This document shows, piece after piece, positions 16,741 to 57,189 of a DNA stretch of 64,000 bases. The stretch covers positions 2,480,001 to 2,544,000 of the forward strand of contig NZ_CP014223.1 in the NCBI RefSeq assembly GCF_001561955.1, written 5' to 3'. Every line of letters begins with the position of its first letter. The stretch's first letter is position 1. The position numbers and the translations under genes were made by a program. This DNA comes from Anaerotignum propionicum DSM 1682 (GTDB taxonomy: Bacteria > Bacillota > Clostridia > Lachnospirales > Anaerotignaceae). The notes beneath the pieces were generated by a model, which saw nothing but the letters and a program-made list of their open reading frames with translations, ran no database searches and had not been told where the DNA came from.

Positions 16741-17093
16741 GGGGATGTAATGGTTTCGACGGGAGTCTTGAAAATAGGGATAGCCATCCGCAGGCCGGTT
16801 AACTGCGTCATCAAGCCGGAAACTTTTAAAAAGAAAAGACAATAATAATTTAGCAATCGCTGCCTAATTGCGGCAGCCGTCGGCCTTTGATCACTCGCTG
16901 TCAAAGATCCCGGCGTCGACTAGGCGAGGCACTTTTTCGCTTAAGCTTTGCGGCGTAAAAAGACTTATGAAGCTACCAAGGGATATAGCCTGTCAATCGG
17001 CGATATTCTAAGGGAATGTTAAAAGACTGACTGTGATGGGAGAAGTTCTTATGGATGGGTTTTCGGACAGGGGTTCGATTCCCCTCATCTCCA
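16741..17093 (+). ncRNA. ssrA: Transfer-messenger RNA (tmRNA)
   Basis: tmRNA rescues stalled ribosomes and tags the unfinished protein. The 5' end GGGGATG pairs with CATCTCC at 17086-17092 to form the acceptor stem; the T-arm GGGTTCGATTCCC is intact and A17093 is the discriminator. CCA is not encoded. The tag frame ends in stop TAA at 16865-16867, and DNNNLAIAA (16838-16864) is its most likely core, close to known clostridial tags; the exact resume codon is inferred. The last bases of the gene form the left attachment site of the prophage, so the 3' end is intact, but the DNA beyond 17095 is phage. Confidence 0.95.
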
Positions 17094-17313: not shown

Positions 17314-17958
17314 CTATATTGTCAAACCAATACGTTTTCGATATTCTATAGCGTTTCTACAATTCGGATTAATACCAGAGTATCGGTTATCACAATACGG
17401 AATCATTAAACAATCATCGCTACCGCACGCCCCAATTTTCAAAAAAGCCTCGAAAAAAGTATTGAAGTCTTTACCTAATATGTATCCATGTCCTTTACAA
17501 CCGTCATGGCTAAGGTATACAACCGGTGGATTAATCTTATCTATCCCAATGTCCAATGCTATAACGTCGCCTTCGTTATATATAATTCCCAACTTATTAT
17601 GCCAAACTTTATCATAAGAATTATTATTGTCTGGAAAACATTCCTCTTGCCAATCTTTTCGATTATTTTCTGCATGTATGACTCCATCAGTAGAAATTGT
17701 AAAGCTCATATAAGGAAATTCGTCCTCCCCCTGAGAATCTTTTTGTTTAGACAAAAAAACACAAAAATCACAATATCCAGAAAAATTAAGAAAAAAATTT
17801 TTTAGCTGCATTGGAAGTTCCATGCCAATTTCATTTTCCAATCTTAAAATTTCATCTTTTGTAGCAGGTTCTCCAATTTCTAATTCCACCTTATCATATA
17901 ATTCTCTATACACATCAACCAATTTATTTAATTGACACTCTATCCATTGATAATCCAT
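17314..17958 (-). CDS. SUKH (SMI1/KNR4) family protein, putative immunity protein
   Basis: The 214-residue protein has the usual SUKH features. A start motif reads ATKDEILRLENEIGMELP at residues about 33-50. The core GDVIALDIG, NPPVVYLSHDG and a closing FNTFFEAFLK follow. SUKH proteins are commonly immunity proteins against polymorphic toxins, but many in phages have no known role. It continues 50 residues past the domain. The start ATG has AAGGAG upstream. No toxin gene is next to it; the neighbour at 18033 is unrecognised. Regional DNA is AT-rich, like the other accessory genes. The fold is fairly certain, the function is not. Confidence 0.75.
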   Translation of the reverse strand: MDYQWIECQLNKLVDVYRELYDKVELEIGEPATKDEILRLENEIGMELPMQLKNFFLNFSGYCDFCVFLSKQKDSQGEDEFPYMSFTISTDGVIHAENNRKDWQEECFPDNNNSYDKVWHNKLGIIYNEGDVIALDIGIDKINPPVVYLSHDGCKGHGYILGKDFNTFFEAFLKIGACGSDDCLMIPYCDNRYSGINPNCRNAIEYRKRIGLTI

Positions 17959-18614: not shown

Positions 18615-20471
18615 TTATTCTGTCCAGGATGCATGCAAATCTATTGTATTGCTCTTTGGTCGTTTTTTATCATTCAAAATATCAACTTGAACTATTACTG
18701 GAAAATTACAAGCAGTACCAGTAACTACACAAGCTCCTTGTTGTAAAATTGGAATCATTTCAAAAGATGCTGCATCTAAAAATGACACCGTTTTTCCAAT
18801 TGCTTTAATATCTTCACTGTTCACTAATCTATGCAAAAAATAATTATGTAACTGTGATATTATAGTGTCTGAGATATCAGATGGCCTTTGACTAGCAATT
18901 GTAAGAAAAACTCCAAACTTTCTACCTTCTTTTATTATTTCTTCAAAAACTTCTATTCGGTAATCTTTCCATGCACTACTTTCTCTTTCCGATTCTTTTG
19001 ATAAAATATTATGAGCTTCATCAACAATAATATATAACGCCTTATTTCTTCTATGTAAGTTTTGTTTTTTGTGCTTATCATATTCTTTTTTACAAATAAG
19101 CATAGGAACAATTTTTCTCATATAAATATTGACATCAATCAATGACACAATACTTATATTATTGGGGTTATTATTATTTTCATTTATTGAGAAAACCTTA
19201 TTCATGTCATCTAATCTAGTATCCAATCTTCTAATTATTGGGGCAATATGCTCTTCGTTTACATAACCTCTCTGAACATCATACACATATTGATACTTCA
19301 TAGCAAATTCAAAGATAGCCCAATAGTCTGCTTTATCCCCTATATGAATTTTACATTCATCTAACTTCAATTTCTCTATTAATTTAATAAAAGCTGGATT
19401 TTCCTTAAACTCTTCCTCTGTATTTCTATATTCTTTAGTCCCAAATAAACCTATGTTATACCAACTTCCAGTTGTAGCATTAAACGTTATATTGTTGAAA
19501 AAGGCATCTCTTGGTTCATCTATGTCATGATAACTAACATTTATTATTTCTTCATAATATCTTTTTACAGAATTATATTTATATCCAAAATCAAACAAAC
19601 CCTGTACTAATTCAATTGTTTTTTCTTGAATTACATTATTTGTATTGGTTGCATTAACTGAATGTCTAATTAAATATTTATATTGGTTTATCGCTCTTTT
19701 TAAAAAAGGTTGTTGTGTCTTTTCTGTCGCTTCTAGTATAATTGACCAAAACTCCAAATCTTGAATATCACTTTCATCAAGATTATATGTATCTTTCTTT
19801 TCCCTAGTAGATAATAATATCACATTCTTGTTTTCAGTAATGGTTTCAGCATATTCTCCGTTAAAATCTATCAGAACAAATTTACTATTTTTTTTGAAAG
19901 CTTCTATTTCACCATACATATTAAATAATTCCGTATATATTTTAGCTAATGTATTAGATTTTCCACTTCCTGTATTTCCAAAAATCCCAATATGACTTCC
20001 AAATAACGACTGTACTCCAAGTAATAATTTATATTGCTCATAAGCACTAATATCCCCAAGTTCAATAACCGGAGCATTTTCAGAAACAAATGAAAATATT
20101 TTCTGAACTTCACTATCTTTTAAAATATATACATAATTTGAAATTAACGGTAATTCCGAAAGTCCTCTTTTAAATGTTCCTATATCTTCAATTCTACCAA
20201 CTATGCTAATTTCAATAACCCTATTAATTGAATTATTTTTTTCTGCATACTCTTCTTTAACCGTTTTATCGTTAACATATTCTCCTTCAACTTTACCGAT
20301 TATATCTAAAAAATTTTTTCTTATTTTTACAAAGCTGCCAACAGATATATTCTTTATTATTTTTCCTTTATAATTAAGGGTAGACGTGTTCTTGTCTTGA
20401 TACACTTTTGCTCTTACTTTTTGTCCTTTTACCTCTATTACTTCTCCTATTTTCAAAATATTTTCATTCAT
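18615..20471 (-). CDS. HerA-like DNA-translocating ATPase of a SIR2-HerA system
   Basis: This FtsK/HerA-type hexameric ATPase pairs with a SIR2 NADase in an anti-phage system. The 618-residue protein has an N-terminal HAS-barrel-like region, Walker A GNTGSGKS near residue 167, Walker B LYIIVDEAHN near 483 and the HerA/VirB4-like ASQRPSD near 527. The start is taken as the ATG at 20471, with GGAGA upstream. It then overlaps the SIR2 stop by 8 nt (ATGAATGA), a coupled pair. Family knowledge: Sir2-HerA complexes degrade NAD+ on phage infection. Here it sits in the prophage's left-end accessory region. HerA also works with NurA in other systems, but no NurA is present. Confidence 0.88.
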   Translation of the reverse strand: MNENILKIGEVIEVKGQKVRAKVYQDKNTSTLNYKGKIIKNISVGSFVKIRKNFLDIIGKVEGEYVNDKTVKEEYAEKNNSINRVIEISIVGRIEDIGTFKRGLSELPLISNYVYILKDSEVQKIFSFVSENAPVIELGDISAYEQYKLLLGVQSLFGSHIGIFGNTGSGKSNTLAKIYTELFNMYGEIEAFKKNSKFVLIDFNGEYAETITENKNVILLSTREKKDTYNLDESDIQDLEFWSIILEATEKTQQPFLKRAINQYKYLIRHSVNATNTNNVIQEKTIELVQGLFDFGYKYNSVKRYYEEIINVSYHDIDEPRDAFFNNITFNATTGSWYNIGLFGTKEYRNTEEEFKENPAFIKLIEKLKLDECKIHIGDKADYWAIFEFAMKYQYVYDVQRGYVNEEHIAPIIRRLDTRLDDMNKVFSINENNNNPNNISIVSLIDVNIYMRKIVPMLICKKEYDKHKKQNLHRRNKALYIIVDEAHNILSKESERESSAWKDYRIEVFEEIIKEGRKFGVFLTIASQRPSDISDTIISQLHNYFLHRLVNSEDIKAIGKTVSFLDAASFEMIPILQQGACVVTGTACNFPVIVQVDILNDKKRPKSNTIDLHASWTE

Positions 20472-21642
20472 CTTTAAATTCTCCAAATAAATCCTCTAAC
20501 TCTTTGTTCAGAAATGGTAAATCCAATAAATGTTCTCTTTTACCACCCTTAATCTCATCTTCACTTGGCTTATCCGTCTTTACAACCCAAACATTTTGAA
20601 ATTTTTCAAACTTCTCGCAATAATTATCAATATCATCTTTTCTAAATGCAAATATTATTACCATTAACGACGGATTACCCAATGCCCTCATTGTTATTTC
20701 TTGAATGTGCTCATCTTCAAATGAAAATCCTTGTGTTATCAACACAGTATTATTTTTCTCAAGCTCATTACTATAAATTCTCATTAACTCATAATAATTC
20801 TTATCCATCAAAGTATCGCTGAATTTTTGTTTTGTTGGGTTTACAATTTTAAAACTATCTTTGAAATTTTTTACGAAATCAATATATGTGTCTTTAATTC
20901 CATCAAATTTTTCAGGTAAAATTTCATCTAAAACCTTTTCATCACATTTACACCAATCATCAACACCTAAAATTTTCTCTTCTGTTTCTGTAAAATCCGT
21001 AAATAATTTACAAAAACAAGTATAAAAAACCTCAATGCTCTTTATGTATTCATTATAAACAATTCTTCTTTGTTTTCCTTCTTCAATTTTCCAAGTCACT
21101 GATCCATGTAACTTCATTAAATTAAATATTGGTACTTCTACACTTCTATTTGTAAATATTGCTCTTTCAAAATAAAGTCTATTAAAATTAGCAGTTGAAA
21201 AATATGGATTTATTCTTCCCTTAAATCCATCATTATAATCAATAAAGTTACTTTCTAAAGCATATTCTAATACAACATCATAATTAGTTGTAAAAATATT
21301 CGCCTGCTTATTAATAACAGCTGACTCCCTTGCGTTTAAAATATTCCTCCAAAGCCTTATAAATTCGATTTGATTTTTTATATTAAGTTCATTAATCTTA
21401 TGGCATAAAGGATAAATAGATTTTTCGAAAAACTTCCAAAATATAAAAGCTTCAATTACAGTATATTTATCATCCCTATTATTTTTATTAATTACTTCTA
21501 AAATTTTTTCCGTATCACCCAACGTATCAACAATACCATGTGCAAATCCAGCTCCCAATAACAAATTAATGTTACTAGATTCAATCATTTTCTTAAATTC
21601 GCTCTTAAATTCCTTTGAATTAATAATTTTAACTTTTGCCAT
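20464..21642 (-). CDS. SIR2-family NAD-hydrolysing defence protein
   Basis: The 392-residue protein has the SIR2 nucleotide pocket: LLLGAGFA near residue 27, FTTNYDVVLEYAL near 119, LMKLHGSVTW near 177, and a GFSFEDEHI motif near 304 typical of the SIR2_2 defence type. Such proteins hydrolyse NAD+ during phage infection and stop the cell. The start ATG at 21642 has GGAGG 5 nt upstream; the longer reading to 21675 lacks one. It overlaps the HerA gene, so the two are probably made together. A TATAAT lies near 21690 on the minus strand without a clear -35. The AT-rich sequence suggests a separate origin from the phage core. Confidence 0.9.
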   Translation of the reverse strand: MAKVKIINSKEFKSEFKKMIESSNINLLLGAGFAHGIVDTLGDTEKILEVINKNNRDDKYTVIEAFIFWKFFEKSIYPLCHKINELNIKNQIEFIRLWRNILNARESAVINKQANIFTTNYDVVLEYALESNFIDYNDGFKGRINPYFSTANFNRLYFERAIFTNRSVEVPIFNLMKLHGSVTWKIEEGKQRRIVYNEYIKSIEVFYTCFCKLFTDFTETEEKILGVDDWCKCDEKVLDEILPEKFDGIKDTYIDFVKNFKDSFKIVNPTKQKFSDTLMDKNYYELMRIYSNELEKNNTVLITQGFSFEDEHIQEITMRALGNPSLMVIIFAFRKDDIDNYCEKFEKFQNVWVVKTDKPSEDEIKGGKREHLLDLPFLNKELEDLFGEFKDE

Positions 21643-21828
21643 TAGTTCCTCCGCACCTCTTTTATTAGAACACACTTACTTAAAAAGCATAGCATTATAA
21701 ACAAAACCTAGCTTTGCTGAAATCCCGCATACTTTCTCTAAAATACCGCTAACCATGCTACCAATTATGGTACAACTGTGTCTATTTCTTTTGAATATTG
21801 TCAAGACTTCAACCAAGGAGTGATAATC

Positions 21829-23830: not shown

Positions 23831-25021
23831 TTAAATAAATTCACTTGAGATATAATTTGTTGCTTTGAACCGAAATGTTTTTCTTAGATCACCATTTATA
23901 ATGTAAAGCAATCCCGCATTTGCTTTGGCGTTAAAATTGTAAACCCTGTATAGACTATAGCTCTCACTATTTAAAATTGAAAATTGAACTTCATTGTCTG
24001 AAATAAGAAACGGGGTATCTTTGTCACCAGAAGTTGTTTTGACTTCTATGTATCTTTTATTTCCATTTTTATCAAAAGATACAATGTCATAACCCGTTCC
24101 ATCACCTATCTTTTGAGAAGTATGTTCAATACTTTTTATCAAGTCAACTCGCCCCTCATCGGTTAGTCGTTTCTTTTCATATTCAATAACCATTTTCTCG
24201 CCGGCCAACCCAATTTTCATGTCGTGAATCTGCTTATTAATGTGATTTACCTTACGACCATCACAACAATACGGTCCATTTTTCTGTAAAACATTCGGAG
24301 GTTTCTGCAGTGTAAGTGAAAAACTAACTGGATTAATAATTACTCTATTCAGTTCATCATTACGGTCATCAATATAAAAAACATCTGCTTGGGCCCCAGC
24401 CAAAATGTAATTGTTTGTTTTCTCTGTCGAACAATTATGCATTCTGCCTTTAAGCTCACGGTAAACAGACAACATTTTTCTTAAGTCATCTACTAAAACT
24501 TGGTTACAGGGTAACGCATGAGCATCATAATATTTACCGCAAATATGACCTAATTCATATCCTCGAGGTAGGTCTGAATGTTTACCTTGGGCTTTTAAAT
24601 CAATTGGGTCAAAGGTAAAGTCATTTAGGGTTGTTGCCAATATTTTTTGCCATATAGTCGCTACTTTTTGAATATTCAACTTACCCTCTTTAGCTTTAAA
24701 TGTTTCTCTAAAATATGTCCATCCTTGATTTAATGAAAGATAAACTCCACTCATATCGGCTTTGAAAAGGTACACAACATCATACCCTTTGGTTGCTGTG
24801 TTAGTAATATCTATATCAAATATACCAATCCAAGGTACTGCAGCCCAATTTCCATTACCCGGTGATGCAGTAATTTTAAATTGATTACTATTAAGTTGTA
24901 ATTCTGACAATATATTTTTAGGTATGTCATTACGAATATAGTTTGCAAGTGGGTTTTTTTCAAGATTATTCCTTGATTCATTACTGTAATTCTGAAGAAC
25001 CTTTTCAAGTATATCTTTCAA
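23831..25021 (-). CDS. McrB-N (DUF3578) and DUF3883 nuclease-domain protein
   Basis: The 396-residue protein joins two domains. Residues about 1-210 match the McrB N-terminal DUF3578 type (SPGNGNWAAVPWIGIF, YLFKADMSGVYLSLNQGW), thought to bind modified DNA. Residues about 270-370 match DUF3883, a PD-(D/E)xK-like nuclease fold, with GTGYDIVSFD and RYIEVKTTSG giving the Asp, Glu and Lys positions. Together they suggest a single-chain type IV (modification-dependent) restriction enzyme, with no GTPase domain. The start ATG is 396 codons up with AGGGAGG near it. It lies beyond the late-operon terminator at 25158, so it is not part of the lysis operon. Substrate specificity is unknown. Confidence 0.82.
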   Translation of the reverse strand: MKDILEKVLQNYSNESRNNLEKNPLANYIRNDIPKNILSELQLNSNQFKITASPGNGNWAAVPWIGIFDIDITNTATKGYDVVYLFKADMSGVYLSLNQGWTYFRETFKAKEGKLNIQKVATIWQKILATTLNDFTFDPIDLKAQGKHSDLPRGYELGHICGKYYDAHALPCNQVLVDDLRKMLSVYRELKGRMHNCSTEKTNNYILAGAQADVFYIDDRNDELNRVIINPVSFSLTLQKPPNVLQKNGPYCCDGRKVNHINKQIHDMKIGLAGEKMVIEYEKKRLTDEGRVDLIKSIEHTSQKIGDGTGYDIVSFDKNGNKRYIEVKTTSGDKDTPFLISDNEVQFSILNSESYSLYRVYNFNAKANAGLLYIINGDLRKTFRFKATNYISSEFI

Positions 25022-26156: not shown

Positions 26157-26870
26157 TTATTTCTTTTTATCTAAATACCGTGTGACCAAAGCCATGGCAC
26201 GAAGCATATCATCAGAGAGATCCATCTTGTTTTTGTCAGAAAAACAACCGGTATCCTGCATATCTTTGACCATAGGTTTTGCCCAGCTTGGTACTTCATT
26301 TAATGTGTTATATCTTTTCATATTCTCATCCTCCTTAAATTCATCCGGTACCTTTACCACCCAATAAAATTTCACCTGACTTTTGAACAAATTGTAATCT
26401 GCATTTATCTGTGCCGACTTATTGGACCAGGGATCATTGATTTGTACCTTTCCTCCTTCCAAACCGTACCACAACACATAGTGGCCGCTGGTTGTCCAAT
26501 TCCCCTTGCCCATGCAAGTGATAACCAAATCGCCCCGCTCAATTGCCTCCCTTGCCAACTCGTGATACTTAGAAGCAGGAGAACCATAAATATTTGCACT
26601 GTTTAGCATGGTAATATCAATGCCATACGCCGCTCCCTGGGGTTTGAAATAGGAATAATATGTACCCTGCCCTTTTGCTTTATATCCATGTTTCTTGGAC
26701 CATTCCGCCGTAGTAATGGGAGTAACAGTCTTGTCGGCCAGGGTTGCAATGACCATCGCCGCACAAGTAATACCACACCCCTCCGCCTTAATCGTGGTCT
26801 TTTCTCCCGGTGCAGAATAATCATGACTTGCCCATTTCGGATCATTCTGCATATACAAAATTGGTTTCAT
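26157..26870 (-). CDS. Phage endolysin, C39-like cysteine peptidase
   Basis: This lysis enzyme cuts peptidoglycan at the end of infection. The 237-residue protein has a peptidase_C39-like domain with the catalytic Cys in EGCGITCAAMV (near residue 32), His in SGHYVLWYG (near 128) and Asp in INDPWS (near 146). A ~45-residue C-terminal module (RYNTLNEVPSWAKPMV to the end) is the short domain often found on clostridial phage lysins. It has no signal peptide, so release depends on the holin. Its start overlaps the holin stop by 1 nt, giving TAATG-type coupling. The cut bond is not predictable. Confidence 0.85.
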   Translation of the reverse strand: MKPILYMQNDPKWASHDYSAPGEKTTIKAEGCGITCAAMVIATLADKTVTPITTAEWSKKHGYKAKGQGTYYSYFKPQGAAYGIDITMLNSANIYGSPASKYHELAREAIERGDLVITCMGKGNWTTSGHYVLWYGLEGGKVQINDPWSNKSAQINADYNLFKSQVKFYWVVKVPDEFKEDENMKRYNTLNEVPSWAKPMVKDMQDTGCFSDKNKMDLSDDMLRAMALVTRYLDKKK

Positions 26871-27124
26871 TATTCCTCACCTCCGTTATTTTTCTGATAC
26901 TGGGTACCAAAGTAAAAGGCAATCACCACGCTGAAAATAGTTAAAAACTGCTCTCCACTAATCCGGCCAACAATGGCCAAATAGGAGAATACTGCCGTCA
27001 GCAATATTGTAACGATGGATTTCACAGTCAAAAGATTCTGAATGGTTACCTTTGTGCTTTCCCTTAAGATTGCTGCCCCTTGTTGTAACTTACCCTGCGC
27101 TTTGTTCGTTTCGTTTTCGTTCAT
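26870..27124 (-). CDS. Phage holin
   Basis: The 84-residue protein has a soluble, charged N terminus, two membrane segments (about 33-50 and 57-73) and a short hydrophilic tail (YQKNNGGEE), the layout of a small holin that lets the endolysin out. Its start ATG has GGGAGG upstream and lies inside the end of the preceding membrane protein gene (35-nt overlap). The endolysin follows directly. Family naming within holins is uncertain. Confidence 0.75.
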   Translation of the reverse strand: MNENETNKAQGKLQQGAAILRESTKVTIQNLLTVKSIVTILLTAVFSYLAIVGRISGEQFLTIFSVVIAFYFGTQYQKNNGGEE

Positions 27125-42069: not shown

Positions 42070-43746
42070 TTAACAAGTAATGACTGGTATATCATCAAAG
42101 CTGCAAGCAGCCTCTTCCAGTTCTTCTTCCCCAATCATGGAGTGCACTACAGCCATAAATGGATCCGTTTTTCTGCTTTTCGGTTCAATTTTTCCATAAT
42201 AGAAATTTCCCGTTTCTTCTCCTTTGCTTTTTCCTGCTGATATTAATTTTGTGTTATTTACCGCCCACCGCAATGGAGGGTTGTCACCCCAGGTAAACAA
42301 ATGACGGATAAAAACATCATCTATGACCTTCTGCACCTTGTATATATCATTCGGCCTTACCAATTTAACATTTTTATACTCTTTTGCATCAAACCCAATT
42401 TTTCTTAATTCGCTTGCTACAAGAGCATATTTGTTGTTATCCAATAAGATCAGCTTGATATTATATTTCTGCGCCATTGTTGCGATATAATCACATAATA
42501 GCCTTGGGTGAATGGTAACATCATCCACAAGTGTCAAAAGTTCCTCATCTGCCCAGGCCTTCCATGGTGCCTGAATCCTGTCTAAATCTTTGGAATTTAA
42601 ACACAACCATGAATGATTGATATCATACCTTTCCTCGCCTTTCGTGAAATGAAAATTTACACTTGCCAAGTCGTTAATGGCAGCATAGTCAATCCCAACA
42701 GTACAGCTCCAACCGGACATATCCGGCAACGGCCTATTGGTTGGAATAACATTTTCCTCAAAGTCTGTTACTGCCAACTCCCGATTGGATCTGGGGAAAT
42801 TCATTCTTTTTGTATAAAACTCCGTCTTGATTTCTTCGGAATATTTCATCTTCCCAAACTCTTTTTCCATGGTGTCTTGCAAAATAGGCAAATATTTCAA
42901 AGAAGGATTTGCTTTGTGCCACATTTTCGGATTGTATATTTCTTTTTCATCATTAATTTTATAAAGCAAAGGAAGGGTTTTGGAATTCTGTATTACACCA
43001 TTCAAAATGTCATAACATACTCTCAATTCATTATCCAAAACCCCCTCCCTCACATGACCGTTTGTTGTGATTTTAAAAATACGAGAATGTTTGCGCTTAC
43101 CAAAACCACTGGTAAAAACGTTGATAATCTCATAACTCATGTACTCGTGGATCTCATCAAAAATCAGGCACGCAGAACGTTTACCATCTTTTGTCCTGGC
43201 ATTGGAGGTATGATATTTGATCACGGAGCCAGTCTTTAAATTCCTGATTAGTTCTTTGCTTTTGTAAAAAAACTTTTTAAGCTTTTTCCAATGCCGCTCC
43301 AACACATCATAAATATCATTGAAAGAAGTTTCTGCTTGGTCCTCTGAATTTGCTATGATTTCTATGTTGTATCCTTTTACACCATGATAGTGGGTGCTTA
43401 GGTACCAGCTCACTGGAGAAATAAATCCATTTTTACCGTTTCCTCTGCCCATCATGATGATATATTCATCAAAAACAACAGTGTCATTGTCCAAATTATA
43501 GCAGTGAATCAATGCAAATAAAAAAAGCTCCCAATCAAAGAGCTGTAACTCAAAATATTTTTCTGTTAATTCTACAGCCTTGTTTATCTTGTCCACGTCA
43601 ATAAACACATTGGGTTTATTTAACCCTTCTTCAACAATGCCCAGGGCCATAAATATTTCATCCCCGACAATAATTTCACCGCTGTACACACCGTCAATGT
43701 AATCATCAATATAGGGGTGATAGGATTTTTTTCTACATCTCTTCAT
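42070..43746 (-). CDS. Terminase large subunit
   Basis: This motor packages DNA into the head and cuts it. The ~558-residue protein has a Walker A variant GRGNGKN near residue 102, Walker B SACLIFDEIHEYMSYE near 196, and the nuclease aspartates in TVGIDYAAIND and LILLDNNKYAL. The exact start is unclear among three nearby codons at 43746-43758; the ATG at 43746 is given. It overlaps the P27-type small subunit stop slightly. Its class is that of the HK97-like, cohesive-end terminases. Confidence 0.92.
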   Translation of the reverse strand: MKRCRKKSYHPYIDDYIDGVYSGEIIVGDEIFMALGIVEEGLNKPNVFIDVDKINKAVELTEKYFELQLFDWELFLFALIHCYNLDNDTVVFDEYIIMMGRGNGKNGFISPVSWYLSTHYHGVKGYNIEIIANSEDQAETSFNDIYDVLERHWKKLKKFFYKSKELIRNLKTGSVIKYHTSNARTKDGKRSACLIFDEIHEYMSYEIINVFTSGFGKRKHSRIFKITTNGHVREGVLDNELRVCYDILNGVIQNSKTLPLLYKINDEKEIYNPKMWHKANPSLKYLPILQDTMEKEFGKMKYSEEIKTEFYTKRMNFPRSNRELAVTDFEENVIPTNRPLPDMSGWSCTVGIDYAAINDLASVNFHFTKGEERYDINHSWLCLNSKDLDRIQAPWKAWADEELLTLVDDVTIHPRLLCDYIATMAQKYNIKLILLDNNKYALVASELRKIGFDAKEYKNVKLVRPNDIYKVQKVIDDVFIRHLFTWGDNPPLRWAVNNTKLISAGKSKGEETGNFYYGKIEPKSRKTDPFMAVVHSMIGEEELEEAACSFDDIPVITC

Positions 43747-44050
43747 CAGTATCATCACCCACCTGACAAGATGGTTTTAGCGCTAAATAATCCAAAATAC
43801 ATAGCATTTGTTTATTAACTTTCAATAATTGTTCCACACTTTCGTTCTTTTTTATGCCCGCTTGGCCTCCTCCATTATTATATTTTACCGTTACACCTCT
43901 GCCTTTTATATCTGCTAACAATGCATTTTTTGTATCCCACAATTCTAGATAATCCCGCACTAAATCAAGATAATATTTGCCTAACGAGCCATTCCGCTCT
44001 AGCTGGTCGACCAGATCTTTTTCCAGTCCTTTTCTTGTAATTTGCTTCAT
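43733..44050 (-). CDS. Terminase small subunit (P27 family)
   Basis: The 105-residue protein (KDLVDQLERNGSLGKYYLD, DYLELWDTKNALLADI, SVEQLLKVNKQM) has the helical pattern of the P27 small terminase, which recognises the packaging site. It follows the HNH gene and overlaps the large subunit, a canonical order. GAGGGGGG precedes the ATG. Confidence 0.88.
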   Translation of the reverse strand: MKQITRKGLEKDLVDQLERNGSLGKYYLDLVRDYLELWDTKNALLADIKGRGVTVKYNNGGGQAGIKKNESVEQLLKVNKQMLCILDYLALKPSCQVGDDTDEEM

Positions 44051-44151
44051 ACCCCCACCCCCCTCACGTGTGAAATGAATATTTCTGAATTGTCTCGACC
44101 CACCTGAGTAACAACGAAAATCTTAAACTGCGTTTTTTTCGACCGGGGGTA
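44051..44151. other. Possible packaging (cos) region
   Basis: These 101 bp between HNH and small terminase are where HK97-like cohesive-end phages carry cos. It contains C-runs and G-runs (CCCCCACCCCCC near its left end, ACCGGGGGT near its right end). No direct evidence of cutting is available. Confidence 0.3.
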
Positions 44152-44502
44152 TCACCATTTTTCCTCGGTCAACGGCTTCTTTTTTTCGTACTTTCCCATC
44201 CGCTCCGGATGGCATTCTGTTTCATGGCAATACTTGCACACGCTGATAAGGTTTCGTTCTTTCCTCCCACTTTCATTTGTGTAATAACTGCTTAAGCATA
44301 GCAAAGGAAACTGCCTCAACTCTTTCACATGATGTACTGTTGTTGCCTTCGTGTATCTCTTATATTTATTTTTGCATACTTGGCATTCAAAATGGTCTCG
44401 TTCAAAGATCTCCCGCCTTTTTCTTCTCCATTCGGGCGAAGTATAAAACTTATGTACATCGCCGCTTCGAATCAACGCAATTAATTCAGTCAACCTCTTC
44501 AT
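44152..44502 (-). CDS. HNH endonuclease of the terminase module
   Basis: HNH proteins beside the small terminase assist cos cleavage in HK97-like phages. The 116-residue protein has a start helix (MKRLTELIALIRSG), SPEWRRKRREIFERD, a CQVC pair, the TTVHHVKELRQFP catalytic His pair and CKYCHETECHPE. The start ATG at 44502 has GAGGGG upstream; a longer reading to 44649 runs into the neighbouring gene and lacks a ribosome site. Confidence 0.9.
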   Translation of the reverse strand: MKRLTELIALIRSGDVHKFYTSPEWRRKRREIFERDHFECQVCKNKYKRYTKATTVHHVKELRQFPLLCLSSYYTNESGRKERNLISVCKYCHETECHPERMGKYEKKKPLTEEKW

Positions 44503-44560
44503 TGCTTCCCCTCTTTCTTGCAATAAAAAAGGACACCCATAGGTATCCTTAATCAAATAT

Positions 44561-44833
44561 CTATTTATCATACACAAATGGTTTGCCACACTTTTTGCAA
44601 TGCTTGGTTCCGTTCTTCCACCATTGGAGTGGTGCAGTACCTTTTCCACAATTGGGACATCTTTGATAAATTAAACTAATAATTAATATAATAACCGTAA
44701 GCCCCACTGCCGTATAAGCCCAGAACAAATAAATTTCTGGTGAACCAGCATACAAAACACGTGGAATTATCAAACAAAAAACAGCCAAGATATCAACAAC
44801 AATACACATTCTAGCTTTATTTCTACTTAGCAT
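44561..44833 (-). CDS. Zinc-ribbon membrane protein, array copy A
   Basis: This is one of four tandem paralogs. The 90-residue protein has two membrane segments (about residues 10-27 and 37-54, ILAVFCLIIPRVLY and FWAYTAVGLTVIILIIS), a basic RC step and a zinc-ribbon tail (CPNCGKG, then CKKCGKPF). PLQWWKNGTKHC and the terminal VYDK are shared with the others. GGGGGAATCTT precedes the ATG. Copy A is the most diverged at the N terminus. The family is unknown to me. It lies just upstream (in transcription terms) of the HNH gene. Confidence 0.72.
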   Translation of the reverse strand: MLSRNKARMCIVVDILAVFCLIIPRVLYAGSPEIYLFWAYTAVGLTVIILIISLIYQRCPNCGKGTAPLQWWKNGTKHCKKCGKPFVYDK

Positions 44834-44885
44834 AAGATTCCCCCTAACTTAAATTGATTAAGGACTGCCCCAAACATTCACATAT

Positions 44886-45155
44886 CTATTTATCATACTC
44901 AAACACTTTTCCACAATTAATGCATTCCTGTGTTCCACTCTCTGACCACTGCGGCTCAACAGTTAACTTTCTACAATATGGGCATCTAAGATATTTAAGT
45001 CTAATAATAAGCACAGCAATCCAAAGAACCGGCAACGTCCACGAGAGAATTTCTCGTAATACAGATTGCCCTTCAATAAAAAAAGTAATGCAAAAAATAA
45101 CAATAACTAAATAGTACAACACAATATATGCTCTTGCATATGGTCTTTTCAGCAC
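44886..45155 (-). CDS. Zinc-ribbon membrane protein, array copy B
   Basis: The 89-residue protein begins MLKRPYARAYIVLYYL, has two membrane segments (about 10-27 and 36-52), then CPYCRKL, QWSESGTQEC and INCGKVFEYDK. It has a GTG start at 45155, preceded by a G-rich stretch (GGGGGATGG). It shares the N- and C-terminal ends with copies C and D; the middle is more variable. The repeat unit is about 300 bp. Confidence 0.72.
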   Translation of the reverse strand: MLKRPYARAYIVLYYLVIVIFCITFFIEGQSVLREILSWTLPVLWIAVLIIRLKYLRCPYCRKLTVEPQWSESGTQECINCGKVFEYDK

Positions 45156-45188
45156 ATTTCCATCCCCCAGGTTTCTTTAATCATATAT

Positions 45189-45458
45189 CTATTTGTCGTA
45201 TTCAAATACCTTATAACAATTACTGCACTTCCGCGTTCCATTCTTTGACCACTGCGGCACAACTGTTAACTTTTTACAATACGGGCATCTAAGGTACTTA
45301 AGCTTAATGATAAACGAAACACCCCAAAGTCCACAATCTGTCCATAAAAGAATTTCCCATAATGTAGATCCACGATGCATAAAAGAAATAATTATAAACA
45401 TAACAAAAGCTATAGAACTCATCACGATATATACTCTAGCATACGACCTTTTTAGCAC
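45189..45458 (-). CDS. Zinc-ribbon membrane protein, array copy C
   Basis: The 89-residue protein begins MLKRSYARVYIVMSS, has two membrane segments and the ribbon CPYCKKL, QWSKNGTRKC, SNCYKVFEYDK. One position differs from the others: Tyr replaces Gly after the last Cys pair (CYK instead of CGK). The GTG start has GGAGTGGGG upstream. It is closest to copy B. Confidence 0.72.
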   Translation of the reverse strand: MLKRSYARVYIVMSSIAFVMFIIISFMHRGSTLWEILLWTDCGLWGVSFIIKLKYLRCPYCKKLTVVPQWSKNGTRKCSNCYKVFEYDK

Positions 45459-45490
45459 GTCCCCACTCCCAGTTATCCTGAATCACATAT

Positions 45491-45763
45491 CTATCTATCA
45501 TACTCAAATGGTTTCCCACACTTTTTACAATACTTGGTATCATTCTTCGACCATTGTAGTGGAACACCACTATATCCGCAATGTGGACATTTTAAATACT
45601 TATCTCTGATAAATATTGCAACACCTTGAAAACCGTATCCTATCATATAACCAGTGTATCCATGTATCCAGCTGCTTCTATCGCTAAAATATGCAATAGA
45701 GAAAATAACAATAGATAACAAATACAACATAATAACTGCTCTACCATACGACCTCTTCAGCAT
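45491..45763 (-). CDS. Zinc-ribbon membrane protein, array copy D
   Basis: The 90-residue protein begins MLKRSYGRAVIMLYLL, has two membrane segments and the ribbon CPHCGYS, QWSKNDTKYC, KKCGKPFEYDR. The ATG start is preceded by GGGGGTAGGG. It is the first intact copy in the direction of transcription, directly after a decayed fifth copy. Confidence 0.72.
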   Translation of the reverse strand: MLKRSYGRAVIMLYLLSIVIFSIAYFSDRSSWIHGYTGYMIGYGFQGVAIFIRDKYLKCPHCGYSGVPLQWSKNDTKYCKKCGKPFEYDR

Positions 45764-45794
45764 GCATGACCCTACCCCCAGTTAAACACACTTC

Positions 45795-46062
45795 ACACAA
45801 AACGTGATGCCATTCTTCGACCATTGTAACGGCATAAACCAGTTATCGAAGTGGTTTCAATTTATTTTTTTAACAATAACATTGCTAGAGCAGAAAACAA
45901 AAAAGAAGTTATAAGCAATATTTCAGTCATGTTATCAAATAGTACTTTTTGTATATAAAATTATATATACTATTTAAAAAATAATTTTCTTTGTTTGATA
46001 TTTCATTTCTTTGTACCTACCCTTTTAACAAAATTTAACCATAAGACCTTTTCTAGCATATC
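45795..46062 (-). pseudogene. Decayed fifth copy of the zinc-ribbon array
   Basis: CATTCTTCGACCATTGTA, shared with copy D (the QWSKN region), recurs near 45810-45830. A match to the copies' start, including the G-rich ribosome site and the first codons (ATGCTAGAAAAGGTC), recurs near 46040-46065. The frame breaks after a few codons and the membrane part has drifted. The remaining ~140 bp up to 46199 hold no gene I can see. Confidence 0.6.
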
Positions 46063-46199
46063 CCCACTCCTTTATAATCGCATATTATTATACCATATTT
46101 TTACAATTAAAACAAGAAATGTCCGGACAACCTAGTAAGTATTGGCCAAATATGTATGCTACCATAATAACTCAGAAGTAAATACATTTGGTGCCAACT

Positions 46200-46589
46200 T
46201 TATTTTTTTGTGGATAAAATCCCAAAGAATTTTAATTTCATTCTGAAAAAAGCTCTTCTGCTCATTGGTACTTCCAAATGTTCATACCTCACCCCATCCA
46301 CCACATTACTTAGTATGTACGGATAAAACTCACTCCCCGCTTCCATTGCCGACTGTTCTATGATCTCTAACTCCTTTTCAAGTTGCAGCCGCCTAAGTGC
46401 TGTATTCCCCGTCCTGTCAGATATTTTGTTTCCTCCTCCATTACTGTCAAAGCCCGGTGAAGAAAGCTCTGTAATAGAACGTAACTGAGACTGCTTTTCC
46501 CGATATTGCTTGCAAAAATATTTTAACTCCCGATAGCGGTAAGTAGAAATATTATAATTTTGCATTTTTAAATCTCTATCTTTCTTCAT
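46200..46589 (-). CDS. RinA/ArpU-like phage late regulator
   Basis: The 129-residue protein (YRYRELKYFCKQYREKQ, GNTALRRLQLEKELEIIE, VPMSRRAFFRMKLKF) has the layout of RinA/ArpU-type regulators. In these, a C-terminal sigma-4-like helix-turn-helix (VPMSRRAFFR) reads late promoters. The start ATG at 46589 has GGAGAGG 9 nt upstream. It sits ahead of the late genes, as in staphylococcal phages. It probably turns on terminase-to-lysis transcription. Confidence 0.75.
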   Translation of the reverse strand: MKKDRDLKMQNYNISTYRYRELKYFCKQYREKQSQLRSITELSSPGFDSNGGGNKISDRTGNTALRRLQLEKELEIIEQSAMEAGSEFYPYILSNVVDGVRYEHLEVPMSRRAFFRMKLKFFGILSTKK

Positions 46590-46758
46590 CGTCCACCACC
46601 TCTCCTTTAACTTGTCCACATCGCTGTGGATTGTTTAAGCAATGGTTTTTACATTTCGCTTTGTTAATGCAATCCGTACAGCAGATATTTCCCCGCATAT
46701 GGTCGCAATTAAATATTTGGCAAGCTCTATACTTTTTGTTTTTCACTGTTGCTTTCAT
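46576..46758 (-). CDS. Small cysteine-rich phage protein
   Basis: The 60-residue protein holds nine cysteines (CQIFNCDHMRGNICCTDC, CKNHC, RC), so it probably binds zinc. AAGGGGG precedes the ATG. Its end overlaps the start of the RinA-like gene by 14 nt. Such proteins are common in Gram-positive phage late-control regions but have no known role. Confidence 0.75.
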   Translation of the reverse strand: MKATVKNKKYRACQIFNCDHMRGNICCTDCINKAKCKNHCLNNPQRCGQVKGEVVDDEER

Positions 46759-46794
46759 TCTGCACCCCCTTTTAAAGTTATCTCGTCTTGATTC

Positions 46795-47325
46795 TCACCC
46801 TTCTTGCAACTTATTGCAATAATCCAAAAACAAAACAGATCCATTAAACTTAACCTGGTATTCCTCAACATCATTTGCAGTAATATACTTACGTCCATAA
46901 TTCTCTTTCATATCCCGCCAGATCTTCCAAGGGATGAAGAAAAACTCATCTTCAAGCCCAACGCATACTGCCGCTACTGCACCCAAATTCATATGGCTTT
47001 CTAAAGCCTTTTGTTGGTCTGTCGTTAGCACGTCTCGATTCATCCGGTCGGAAGTTGTGGTCTTTGCTTCAAATACGATAGACCGTCCATTGTCAAGGGT
47101 TCCTTGAAAATCTGGTTGGGCATGAGCTGTAAACCTCCCCATAAACATTCCATCATTGCTTTTATTCAAAACCCGAAAAGGTTCAGGTGTTTTATTAATA
47201 TCTGCCCGACCGTTTTCTCTGTATGTATTGCACCCCGCCAGAATTGCAATTTCAAATAAATGCCCTAGAGCATTATTCGTTGCGTTTTGGTGTTGCCGCT
47301 TCGCAGCTTGCTGATTGTAAGCCAT
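46795..47325 (-). CDS. RecU-like Holliday junction resolvase
   Basis: RecU-type nucleases cut four-way junctions made during phage recombination. The 176-residue protein has RecU features: GHLFEIAILAGC near residue 20, AQPDFQGTLD and IVFEAKTTTSDR near 72-90 (the Asp and Glu-x-Lys metal site), and FFFIPWKIW later. GGTGGG precedes the ATG. It lies among replication and recombination genes. Confidence 0.85.
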   Translation of the reverse strand: MAYNQQAAKRQHQNATNNALGHLFEIAILAGCNTYRENGRADINKTPEPFRVLNKSNDGMFMGRFTAHAQPDFQGTLDNGRSIVFEAKTTTSDRMNRDVLTTDQQKALESHMNLGAVAAVCVGLEDEFFFIPWKIWRDMKENYGRKYITANDVEEYQVKFNGSVLFLDYCNKLQEG

Positions 47326-54494: not shown

Positions 54495-54580
54495 AAAAAA
54501 CAGATTTGTCGGAAGAACAAACCCTTAATATTATTATAGACAACATGGTATATTTTGTCAAATTAAGGGGAGGCACTATA

Positions 54581-55660
54581 ATGGAGATTGCACCAAAAAA
54601 AATAAGCGACATATTCAATATACAAGAAGTTGGCGATAGAAATTACTGGTTTGTTCGAACTAGCAGTGGCAAGTTTTATCAAGATTTTGTCTTGCATGAT
54701 TATATAGCCATTGGATGGGATTTCATCTCGATAAGCGACTTTAACTCAACCAAAATTAACACTGTCAAAGCGATGATCAAGCAAAATTTAGCTTTAGATC
54801 CAGATAATGAAAATGTTACTGATACGAAGAAAAAAAAAGGCGAGATAACTGGCATTTATAATAAAATCAAACGCTTTATTAAAGAATTTACTTTAAACGA
54901 CGTTGTGGTAATACCTGATGTTAATTCAGAAAATTATTCGATTGGTATAATTACAAGTGATGTCTTTGAGGACTCTTCCTATATTAAAAAATACCTAGAT
55001 AACGATCCAGACACAGAAATGAACCTATGTCCATACGCAAAACGGAGAAGTGTAAAATGGTTAAAAACAATTTCGAAAAGAAATGCAGATATCTATCTAT
55101 TAAAGGCTCTCGGCTCACAGCATGCAGTTTCTGATGTAAAAGAATACGCACCCTATATCAATAGAAACTTATATGATATTTATTCTAGCGAAGGAAAACT
55201 TCATGCAATAATTAGAGCAGGCACAGATGAGAAAAGCATATCTTTTTCAGAACTAAAGCAATTGGTAGATTTAATAGAGAATGAGCTTAAACGTGCCGAC
55301 GCAAATTGTAATTTAGATGATCTAACGATGAAATTAAATATCCACAGTGCAGGTATTATTGAATTGATAGCAGGAGCTGGAGGATTAAGTTTAGTTTTGG
55401 GAACTGCTATGTTTTCTCTAAACCACTTAATTAATGGTGGAAAAACATCTATGGACTTTAAACTTGATGAAAATGGATTACCTCATTTCTCAGTTTCTTC
55501 AGAATCCCCAGGACTACGGGGAAGAGAGTTAGAAAAAATCAAACTAGAATATGAACACCAAGAAAAAATATTGAAACTATCTTCTTCACTAAACCTGCAG
55601 ATACCTCAAGTACAGTTAACGGACGAAATTGAAAATCCTGTGAAGGAAGATATTGAATAA
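54581..55660 (+). CDS. Membrane-anchored protein between immA and integrase, putative defence gene
   Basis: The 359-residue protein has no certain family. Its N terminus (DRNYWFVRTSSGKFYQDF, then DYIAIGWDFI) resembles the sensor-like N-terminal domain of some Mrr-type restriction proteins. About residues 250-275 form a membrane segment (GIIELIAGAGGLSLVLG). A charged tail follows. The start ATG at 54581 has GGGGAGG 7 nt upstream; a TTG at 54506 is less likely. The place between the repressor locus and int is a frequent site for lysogenic-conversion or defence genes. AT content exceeds that of the structural genes. Function is inferred. Confidence 0.7.
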   Translation: MEIAPKKISDIFNIQEVGDRNYWFVRTSSGKFYQDFVLHDYIAIGWDFISISDFNSTKINTVKAMIKQNLALDPDNENVTDTKKKKGEITGIYNKIKRFIKEFTLNDVVVIPDVNSENYSIGIITSDVFEDSSYIKKYLDNDPDTEMNLCPYAKRRSVKWLKTISKRNADIYLLKALGSQHAVSDVKEYAPYINRNLYDIYSSEGKLHAIIRAGTDEKSISFSELKQLVDLIENELKRADANCNLDDLTMKLNIHSAGIIELIAGAGGLSLVLGTAMFSLNHLINGGKTSMDFKLDENGLPHFSVSSESPGLRGRELEKIKLEYEHQEKILKLSSSLNLQIPQVQLTDEIENPVKEDIE

Positions 55661-56124: not shown

Positions 56125-57189
56125 ATGGCAACAGCTAAGAAATTGCCGTCCGGTTCCTGGACTTGCCGTGTGTATAGCCATACGGAAACCGTTGACGGAA
56201 AAGAAAAATCAGTCTACCAACGTTTTACTGCTCCCACCAAAAAAGAAGCAGAGTTTCGAGCTGCAGAATATGCCCTAAACAAAACCCGCAGAAGAAACCC
56301 TGCAAACTTGACCGTCAAAGAAGCGATAAGTGGTTATATTGATGCAAAAAGAAATATTCTATCGCCTTCCACAATTGTTGGTTATGTTTCTCTTGAAAAA
56401 AGAGCATTTAGTGAGATAGATATTACTATTGCAAAATTAAACAATGATATTCTCCAAAGATATTTCAATAAAATGTCTACGCAAGTTTCTCCTAAAACAC
56501 TACGTAATATGTCCGGATTACTGAGTGCATCTATCTACTATTATGCACCGGATTTTGTGTATCGTGTTTCCCTACCGGCGAAACGATCGTCAGAGATAGA
56601 AATACCTGAAGCCGATGAAATAAAAATGTTAATGGATGCCGCAAAGGGATATAGAATTTTACTTCCTGTCATGCTAGCATCGGGGATGGGCTTAAGACGA
56701 AGTGAGATATCAGGATTAACCGTGGGAGATGTCAACAAGAAGAAAAAAACGCTTTCCATCAATTCTGCTGTCGTCCAGAGTGAAAACAAGGAATGGGTTA
56801 CAAAGGGTACAAAAACAAATTCAGGAAAACGCACACTTTCTATACCTGAATATATTTATCCTACCATTCTGGATGCAACGAAAGACAAAAGTAAAGAGGA
56901 TAGCCTTACCGGTATGACTCCCTCTGCAATTTCCAGCGCATATAATAGGCTGCTTGAAAGTTCAGGGGTAACAAGGTATAATTTTCATTCTTTAAGACAC
57001 TACTATGCTTCTATGATGTTGGCCAATAATGTGCCTAGTAAATATGCAGTAAGGCGAATGGGACACGCCACCGATGACATGTTGAAAAGAGTATATCAGC
57101 ACATCATGAGTGAAAAAGACATTGAAGTTACGGACGTTATAAATGAGTATCTAAATAATGCATTTGGAGGGGACAAAAGTTATCGCTAA
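56125..57189 (+). CDS. Phage tyrosine integrase
   Basis: The enzyme inserts the prophage at the ssrA 3' end. The 354-residue protein has an arm-binding N terminus (SGSWTCRVYSHTE), a core-binding domain (ISGYIDAKRNILSPSTIVGY) and a catalytic domain. The Arg is in MGLRRSEISG near residue 190, HSLRHYYASMM near 289, MGHATDD near 312 and the nucleophile Tyr in VYQHIM near 323. GGAGG precedes the ATG by 12 nt. It ends 71 bp before attR and is transcribed toward the host DNA. Arm-type repeats occur at both ends. Confidence 0.96.
   Translation: MATAKKLPSGSWTCRVYSHTETVDGKEKSVYQRFTAPTKKEAEFRAAEYALNKTRRRNPANLTVKEAISGYIDAKRNILSPSTIVGYVSLEKRAFSEIDITIAKLNNDILQRYFNKMSTQVSPKTLRNMSGLLSASIYYYAPDFVYRVSLPAKRSSEIEIPEADEIKMLMDAAKGYRILLPVMLASGMGLRRSEISGLTVGDVNKKKKTLSINSAVVQSENKEWVTKGTKTNSGKRTLSIPEYIYPTILDATKDKSKEDSLTGMTPSAISSAYNRLLESSGVTRYNFHSLRHYYASMMLANNVPSKYAVRRMGHATDDMLKRVYQHIMSEKDIEVTDVINEYLNNAFGGDKSYR

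What the first reader, a model, noticed from the sequence alone, without database searches (positions are those of the whole stretch)
44561..46062. Tandem array of paralogous membrane/zinc-ribbon proteins in a prophage
Four intact ~90-residue genes and one decayed copy lie in a row with the same layout: two membrane segments, then a CxxC...CxxC ribbon ending in FEYDK. They differ most in the membrane part and keep the ribbon and the G-rich ribosome site. Recent duplication and divergence in phage DNA hints at selection for diversity, for example in superinfection exclusion. No known system with this layout comes to mind.
Basis: partly seen in the sequence, partly recalled or inferred. Interest (0 to 1): 0.75.

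Follow-up and report, generated by a model that had tools for sequence, protein, structure and literature searches.

The report
Shuffling membrane gene array in prophage
A bacterial virus lying dormant in an Anaerotignum genome carries a row of small, related membrane proteins whose set differs between closely related viruses and whose halves have been recombined; they are probably cargo that protects the infected cell against rival viruses or toxins, but this has not been tested.

Summary
Four intact 89-90-residue genes and one decayed copy lie in tandem on the minus strand of an Anaerotignum prophage. Each encodes a predicted two-helix membrane hairpin followed by a cytoplasmic C4 zinc ribbon (AlphaFold mean pLDDT 85, one copy modelled). 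No Pfam or NCBIfam cut-off is reached; the best PHROG match is E 4e-4. Recent in-place duplication is not supported: the copies are 38-61% identical, and two have closer relatives (80-85%) in other prophages. The family was found at six loci (1-4 intact copies each), each time in a slot upstream of terminase genes. Prophage V, with flanks 88-99.7% identical to the window's, holds a non-orthologous set. Copies share conserved ends (start, ribbon, stop, spacer), and some membrane halves and ribbons have recombined separately. A promoter-like site directly precedes the array in two of six loci; a terminator follows it in five of six. The same slot in a sister-genus prophage holds a candidate anti-phage pair, and the window prophage region carries SIR2-HerA and other defence-like genes. 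Best reading: exchangeable cargo acting in superinfection exclusion or phage defence; main rival: a toxin-immunity array. Positive selection is not shown. Function is untested.

The parts
44561..44833 (-). array copy c1, 90 aa, two-TM hairpin + C4 zinc ribbon (no close ortholog found)
44886..45155 (-). array copy c2, 89 aa (type shared with MAG CSMAG_115, 85% aa)
45189..45458 (-). array copy c3, 89 aa (type shared with MB30-C6, 80% aa); structure modelled
45491..45763 (-). array copy c4, 90 aa (no close ortholog found)
45782..46070 (-). decayed fifth copy: ribosome site and first codons kept, part of ribbon kept, middle lost
46087..46115 (-). candidate promoter TTGTTT-17-TATAAT of the array; a 36-nt block around it is shared with an otherwise different prophage (L055)
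44529..44550 (-). intrinsic terminator closing the array; same hairpin and T run in 5 of 6 loci
44551..44575 (-). gene-end repeat (end of ORF + spacer) after c1
44876..44900 (-). gene-end repeat after c2
45179..45203 (-). gene-end repeat after c3
45481..45505 (-). gene-end repeat after c4
46200..46619 (-). left border of the slot: putative late transcription activator (phrog_11237, unknown function, 3.6e-24; weak phrog_248 transcriptional activator, 0.0083)
44152..44505 (-). right border of the slot: HNH endonuclease
43733..44050 (-). terminase small subunit
42070..43758 (-). terminase large subunit
18615..21675 (-). context: SIR2 + HerA anti-phage pair in the prophage region
23831..25021 (-). 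context: MrcB_N/NOV_C protein (PADLOC PDC-S36, PD-T4-1-like)
54506..55660 (+). context: PDC-S02-like candidate defence gene beside the putative repressor; replaced by other genes in prophage V

Best explanation
The array is moron-type cargo in a turnover slot between a putative late-activator gene and the packaging genes of related tailed-phage prophages of Anaerotignum. Each protein is an inner-membrane helical hairpin (both ends inside) with a C4 zinc ribbon in the cytoplasm. In the lysogen the proteins are made from the array's own promoter (or that of a preceding cargo gene) and transcription stops at the array's terminator. They most likely block genome entry or early development of competing phages (superinfection exclusion or phage defence). 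The variable hairpin would contact the incoming phage's injection machinery or a membrane partner, and the conserved ribbon would bind a common cytoplasmic partner or hold an oligomer. The repertoire changes by homologous recombination between conserved gene ends (ribbon + stop + spacer + start), which adds, deletes, replaces and re-pairs hairpins with ribbons. Shown: slot, turnover, conserved end blocks, discordant halves in some pairs, terminator sequence; anatomy by prediction. Inferred: expression in the lysogen, exclusion function, roles of hairpin and ribbon.
For: Slot and turnover: prophage V has flanks 99.7%, 88% and about 94% identical to W yet carries two copies only 38-45% identical to W's four. 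Six loci with 4, 2, 3, 1, 1, 1 intact copies; terminase genes follow by HMM in all six, with terminase small subunit alone and weak (3e-5) in the remnant C (V and N carry near-identical copies of W's terminase). Recombination: of 12 pairs tested, 2 survive correction (c2 vs C_a p 0.0005; M_b vs Y_a p 0.001), breakpoints at codons 64 and 70. Unit: promoter block shared by W and Y (0 of 1000 shuffles reach the score), terminator in 5 of 6 loci. Defence context: the same slot in G053 (L105) holds PDC-M67A/B (8.4e-18, 5.3e-6); SIR2-HerA, PDC-S36/PD-T4-1-like and PDC-S02-like genes lie in the prophage region. V and W have nearly the same putative repressor (2 of 143 residues differ) and integrase (4 of 354), yet differ at the array and at the PDC-S02 locus. 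Topology: N-terminal charge +3 in 12 of 12 members, positive after the second segment in 11 of 12.
Against: No homolog of tested function: Foldseek found nothing at E 0.001 or better in viral or PDB libraries; PADLOC gave only E 0.018 or worse for the 7 of 12 members scanned. No expression data. Close pairs have dN/dS below 1. Only W and Y have a good promoter match directly before the array; in W it precedes the decayed copy; N has none and M only 9/12; a general promoter scan found no excess over shuffles (17 against 13.1, sd 3.6). Three of six loci have one copy, so an array is not obligatory. P22 SieA types under 30% identical showed no difference in target specificity (PMC10883804, passages), so diversity need not mean target diversity. 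Only one clear anti-phage pair was found in the slot in other phages. The position next to a putative late activator also fits lytic expression.
Confidence: 0.5

Rival explanations
1. A toxin-immunity array: membrane proteins that neutralise membrane-active bacteriocins or secreted toxins of competing bacteria, collected as orphan immunities by the phage.
For: The evolutionary pattern (non-identical tandem paralogs, conserved 5' and 3' blocks plus spacer, recombination) is that reported for esaG and tipC immunity genes (PMC9484751, abstract and passages); TsaI there is a membrane immunity protein with many tandem copies, though with little evidence of recombination. A SUKH-1 family gene (E 9.4e-11), often an immunity family (recalled), lies at 17314-17958 near the prophage edge.
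Against: No toxin gene was noticed beside the array in the loci read (by eye, no toxin models run on them). All six loci are phage or prophage-remnant slots beside packaging genes. The one clearly assignable cargo pair in the slot elsewhere is a candidate anti-phage pair.
Confidence: 0.2
2. Other lysogenic-conversion membrane proteins (surface or stress traits) unrelated to conflict.
For: Slot neighbours in other phages include a protein with a copper-amine-oxidase-N domain and an apparent signal peptide and proteins of 144-146 and 167-169 aa with hydrophobic segments by eye and no assignment.
Against: Replacement between near-identical phages, and defence-type cargo in the same slot and prophage region, point to conflict.
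Confidence: 0.15
3. Lytic-phase proteins expressed late (for example delaying lysis or blocking superinfection of the producing cell).
For: The array follows the putative late activator gene and precedes HNH-terminase on the same strand.
Against: A terminator separates it from the terminase genes in W, V and N, and from the terminase-small-subunit genes of C and Y; a sigma-A-type promoter match directly precedes it in W and Y; related prophages L097, L099 and L106 show no array in the slot.
Confidence: 0.1
4. No selected function: a recombination-prone, decaying gene family.
For: Decayed or truncated copies in W, V and M.
Against: Ribbon dN/dS 0.04, 0.05 and 0.21 in the three closest pairs; 12 members with open frames and G-rich ribosome sites read by eye.
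Confidence: 0.05

Closest known systems
EsaG/TipC/TsaI tandem immunity gene arrays of firmicute T7SS (PMC9484751)
   Same: Non-identical tandem paralogs; for esaG and tipC, conserved blocks at gene ends (for esaG also the spacer) with copy gain, loss and mosaics by homologous recombination
   Different: Those immunities have known toxins and, for esaG and tsaI, lie at the toxin or secretion loci; here the unit is phage-borne beside packaging genes, no toxin was noticed, and the protein is a 2-TM zinc ribbon without a named family
[quoted passage not shown]
   Same: Small high-turnover slot between two conserved phage genes, next to packaging functions (cos site there, HNH-terminase here)
   Different: There the hotspots hold diverse unrelated systems, several tested; here the slot repeatedly holds members of one shuffling family, untested; different phage group and host
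Prophage inner-membrane superinfection-exclusion proteins (P22 SieA, lactococcal Sie2009; T4 Imm seen only in a review passage, HK97 gp15 recalled)
   Same: Small inner-membrane phage proteins; divergent types in related phages (SieA)
   Different: No sequence or fold match found; no zinc ribbon mentioned in the passages read (a separate zinc-motif partner protein is described for SieF7/2AB); Sie2009-type genes lie in the lysogeny module (PMC7693887 passages)
Small chromosomal 2-TM + zinc-ribbon proteins of related Clostridia (e.g. L006, L013, L018)
   Same: Same gross layout by eye; weak profile similarity (E 1.6e-6 to 7.8e-4)
   Different: Without the MLKR start, the PQWS ribbon signature or the phage slot in the loci read

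Membership tests
Moron / prophage cargo element | Extra gene(s) inserted between conserved phage genes, absent or different in close relatives | tested here: met
   Different sets in W, V and N with near-identical flanks; no array in the slot of L094, L097, L099, L105, L106
Moron / prophage cargo element | Own promoter and terminator | tested here: inconclusive
   Terminator in 5 of 6 loci; good promoter match directly before the array in 2 of 6; V has a 10/12 match before the preceding cargo gene, C a weaker candidate read by eye, M 9/12 and N none
Moron / prophage cargo element | Expression in the lysogen | not testable with these tools
   No transcript data available
Superinfection exclusion protein | Small membrane protein encoded by a prophage | tested here: met
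   Two hydrophobic segments in 12 of 12 by hydropathy; AlphaFold helices 4-25 and 32-55 in c3. Prediction only
Superinfection exclusion protein | Blocks infection by other phages | not testable with these tools
   Needs phage challenge
Superinfection exclusion protein | Homology to a known exclusion protein | tested here: not met
   No Pfam, NCBIfam, PHROG, PADLOC, PDB-sequence or fold match naming one; not a required feature of the functional class
Recombining tandem immunity array (esaG/tipC type) | Conserved blocks at gene ends and spacer with variable middle, and recombination between paralogs | tested here: met
   Mean pairwise nt identity 76% (codon columns 1-9), 37-41% (28-45), 74% (82-90); 2 of 12 chosen pairs pass correction for a breakpoint
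Recombining tandem immunity array (esaG/tipC type) | Association with a cognate toxin gene | tested here: inconclusive
   None noticed by eye beside the array; no toxin models run there and no genome-wide search made; orphan immunities need no linked toxin
Defence hotspot of prophages | Slot holding known or candidate anti-phage systems in related phages | tested here: met
   PDC-M67A/B in L105; a weak SLATT-like membrane protein in L031 (E 0.0055 Pfam below cut-off, 0.0014 PADLOC). One clear case only; slots of L023, L055 (248 aa) and L024 cargo gave no PADLOC match

The most novel reading that the evidence does not exclude
A phage-borne, shufflable library of exclusion proteins: a common cytoplasmic zinc-ribbon docking module joined to interchangeable membrane hairpins that set target specificity, refreshed by recombination between phages through built-in homology blocks, comparable in logic to recombining immunity arrays but aimed at other phages.
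Probability: 0.25. Interest if true: 0.75.

Novelty: new variant of a known kind. Interest (0 to 1): 0.52.

Why it matters
If the array excludes phages, it would be a compact system in which target range is changed by swapping membrane hairpins on a fixed zinc ribbon, and the conserved blocks make the natural variants directly comparable. It would also mark the activator-terminase interval of this prophage group as a defence hotspot worth mining. If it is instead a toxin-immunity array, it would be a case of such an array moved by phages.

Tried and rejected
Tried without gain: profile scans in Pfam, PHROGs, NCBIfam and PADLOC gave only sub-threshold, mostly zinc-ribbon or membrane-segment matches. 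tblastn of c3 in the phage and plasmid collections gave 2 and 1 records with partial matches at E 0.3-0.9. PDB profile search gave two weak ribosomal proteins (E 0.61 and 0.73). Foldseek matches (best E 0.4 viral, 2.3 PDB) are unspecific. Literature: no paper in the library holds the four terms superinfection exclusion, zinc ribbon, prophage and membrane protein together. I make no wider claim that this is unpublished.

Rejected: recent in-place duplication (orthologous types elsewhere are closer); holin (not excluded by test; a small phage gene of unknown function, phrog_13256, lies at 26870-27124, far from the array); housekeeping gene (strong hits in 3 of 195 relatives and 3 of 392 order genomes, the same three, own included, all in one genus); membership in a named Sie family (no similarity found).

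Weak points: the 12 pairs of the recombination test were chosen by me, and one of the five with p below 0.05 (M_a-Y_a, p 0.008) has its breakpoint at codon 11, at the conserved start, not at the ribbon. The ribbon has few synonymous sites. The slot comparison (array in 5 of the 14 loci where I read both a candidate activator and terminase genes: W, V, N, M, Y against L027, L028, L029, L031, L094, L097, L099, L105, L106) rests partly on reading by eye and was partly found through the array or the terminase itself, so it is not a prevalence estimate. The sixth array locus, C, is a prophage remnant without the activator in view. Of 14 regions taken one (L098) was too short, L095 and L102 had other arrangements, and six (L093, L096, L100, L101, L103, L104) were not in a phage late region; these were left out of the 14. 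Prophage boundaries were not determined.

Full report
Observation. The window (2,480,001-2,544,000 of a 3.12 Mb genome) is from a genome whose relatives with this family include two named Anaerotignum records. The region 44561-46062 lies in a prophage, between a putative late activator gene (46200-46619; phrog_11237 of unknown function at 3.6e-24, weak phrog_248 'transcriptional activator' at 0.0083) and HNH-terminase genes. Four minus-strand ORFs of 89-90 aa are intact and one upstream copy is decayed. Identity among the four is 38-61% overall, 23-52% before the ribbon and 48-76% in the ribbon. Fourteen columns are invariant across 12 members, including the four ribbon cysteines, W70, Y87, D88 and R4/R8 at the start.

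Anatomy. Hydropathy gives two hydrophobic segments with a short loop in all 12 members; the weakest is the second segment of c4 (mean 0.72). Charge is +3 before the first segment in 12 of 12, and positive after the second in 11 of 12. By the positive-inside rule (recalled) both ends are cytoplasmic. AlphaFold2 on the 12-sequence alignment gives helices 4-25 and 32-55 and a two-stranded ribbon, mean pLDDT 85, pTM 0.65. Foldseek finds no match at E 0.001 or better in viral or PDB libraries.

Distribution. One search found matches at E 0.001 or better in 10 of 195 relatives, and at E 1e-6 or better in 4 of 392 order genomes. Strong matches (E below 1e-20) occur in the same three genomes in both: the window's own, G002 = MAG CSMAG_115 and G004 = MB30-C6, all one genus (identified through). 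Three viral contigs also hold them. Six loci result: W (window, 4 + 1 decayed), V (L022, 2 + a remnant), M (L023, 3 + a truncated start), C (L024, 1, in a prophage remnant), N (L025, 1), Y (L055, 1). The weak hits that I read are mostly small chromosomal 2-TM zinc-ribbon proteins. In the own genome there is one such distant gene (L006, E 8.6e-6), two chance-level hits and no second array.

Slot. Terminase genes downstream are supported by PHROG matches in W, M, Y (small subunit; its partial large-subunit frame gave none) and C (small subunit only, 3e-5), and by near-identity to W's terminase in V and N. In Y a 248-aa gene lies between the array and the terminase gene. The upstream regulator of Y is of another family (phrog_36, 2.6e-17).

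Not a recent duplication. c2 is 85% identical to the C copy and c3 is 80% identical to an M copy. C shares with W only the array, and M shares an upstream 2.1 kb (76% nt) and the activator gene but not the terminase region. V and W have near-identical flanks: 99.7% over 3.2 kb upstream, 88% across the activator gene, about 94% downstream in an alignment that starts inside the array. Yet V's two copies are 38-45% identical to W's four. N has flanks 81-96% identical to W and one copy of V's second type (96-97% nt). The slot content is therefore replaced while the flanks stay.

Recombination. Gene ends are conserved at DNA level: mean pairwise identity of the 12 members is 76% in codon columns 1-9, 37-41% in 28-45 and 74% in 82-90. 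The block runs on through the stop codon and spacer into the next start, least well at the c2-c1 junction. Synonymous divergence differs sharply between halves of orthologous copies: c2-C_a dS 0.14 before the ribbon and about 2 in it; c3-M_c 0.33 and 1.7. A maximum chi-square test on third positions of 12 chosen pairs gave p below 0.05 in five. Two survive correction for 12 tests (c2-C_a 0.0005; M_b-Y_a 0.001), with breakpoints at codons 64 and 70; seven pairs gave no signal. So hairpins and ribbons have been re-paired in at least some lineages. Selection: overall dN/dS is 0.22 (c2-C_a), 0.16 (c3-M_c) and 0.29 (V_b-N_a); before the ribbon 0.66, 0.29, 0.37; ribbon 0.04, 0.05, 0.21. In 5 of 55 pairs the ratio before the ribbon exceeds 1 (up to 1.41), in distant pairs near saturation. 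Constraint is strong on the ribbon and weaker on the hairpin; positive selection is not shown.

Transcription signals. A hairpin with a T run closes the array in W, V, N, C and Y, not in M, where a truncated copy follows. TTGTTT-17-TATAAT precedes the first (decayed) copy in W, and TTGATA-16-TATAAT precedes the copy in Y. The 36 nt around them align at a score reached by 0 of 1000 shuffles. In V, C, N and M another cargo gene precedes the array. V has a 10/12 promoter match before that gene, M 9/12, N none, and C a weak candidate (TCGGCA-16-TATTTT, read by eye, where the scan listed a different 9/12 hit). The general scan of 43700-47000 found 17 promoter-like sites against 13.1 in shuffles and 3 terminator-like sites against 1.4, so single matches carry little weight; conservation across loci is the argument.

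Context. The same slot holds other cargo elsewhere: unassigned genes of 144-146 aa (V, C) and 167-169 aa (N, M), a copper-amine-oxidase-N-domain protein (Y), a membrane protein with weak SLATT similarity (L031), and in the sister-genus genome G053 the PADLOC candidate pair PDC-M67A/B upstream of a terminase small subunit. In L097 and L099 I saw no forward cargo gene in the slot, and in L106 only a doubtful 99-aa frame. The window prophage region also has SIR2-HerA, an MrcB_N/NOV_C protein, a PDC-S02-like gene by the putative repressor, a D12 methyltransferase and a SUKH-1 gene. V and W have putative repressors differing at 2 of 143 residues and integrases at 4 of 354, but V has two other genes at the PDC-S02 locus. 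That the two phages are homoimmune is inferred.

Literature. PMC9484751 (abstract and passages) describes tandem esaG and tipC immunity genes evolving by recombination between conserved blocks (for esaG including the spacer), and tsaI without clear recombination. PMC9122126 (passages) describes defence hotspots beside the cos site of P2-like phages. PMC10883804 (passages) reports SieA types under 30% identical with no difference in target specificity between two of them, a caution against reading diversity as specificity. PMC7693887 (passages) describes small membrane Sie proteins in lactococcal lysogeny modules. T4 Imm was seen in a review passage (PMC11436027); details of HK97 gp15 are recalled.

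Verdict. The 'recent duplication' reading is replaced by exchange of old types in a cargo slot. The exclusion/defence reading is the best supported (0.5), with a toxin-immunity array as the main rival (0.2).

Noticed in passing
window 18615-21675: SIR2 and HerA anti-phage pair (PADLOC HerA 7.3e-173, SIR2 1.9e-57) in the prophage region near the tmRNA gene.
   Followed up: partly
window 17314-17958: SUKH-1 (SMI1/KNR4) family gene, often a toxin-immunity family (recalled), near the prophage edge.
   Followed up: no
window 16741-17093: tmRNA gene beside an smpB-like gene; the prophage may be integrated at or near ssrA, with the integrase at the far end (56125-57189). Att sites were not determined.
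   Followed up: no
window 54506-55660 against L092 4422-5651: PDC-S02-like gene between putative repressor and integrase is replaced by two other genes in the near-identical prophage V: a second turnover slot.
   Followed up: partly
L022 4028, L024 4326, L055 7923, L031 6454: Hairpin with a GNRA-type tetraloop (TTGGCG-N-AAGC-N-GGTG) upstream of slot cargo in four loci; absent by this pattern in the window, L023 and L025; function unknown.
   Followed up: partly
L022 4057-4093, L055 8337-8373, L024 ~4350-4388: TTCGACA...TGTCGAA inverted repeat overlapping a promoter-like site before a cargo gene (one arm altered in L024); possible operator shared by different cargo genes.
   Followed up: no
L093, L096, L100, L101, L103, L104: A relative of the phage activator gene sits beside an antiporter-like membrane gene (five of six also near a leuB-like gene) in Anaerotignum-group chromosomes, the window's own included: possibly a domesticated or remnant phage gene. 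Gene names by eye.
   Followed up: no
L105 1986-3590 (minus strand): Candidate defence pair PDC-M67A/B in the activator-terminase slot of a sister-genus prophage.
   Followed up: partly
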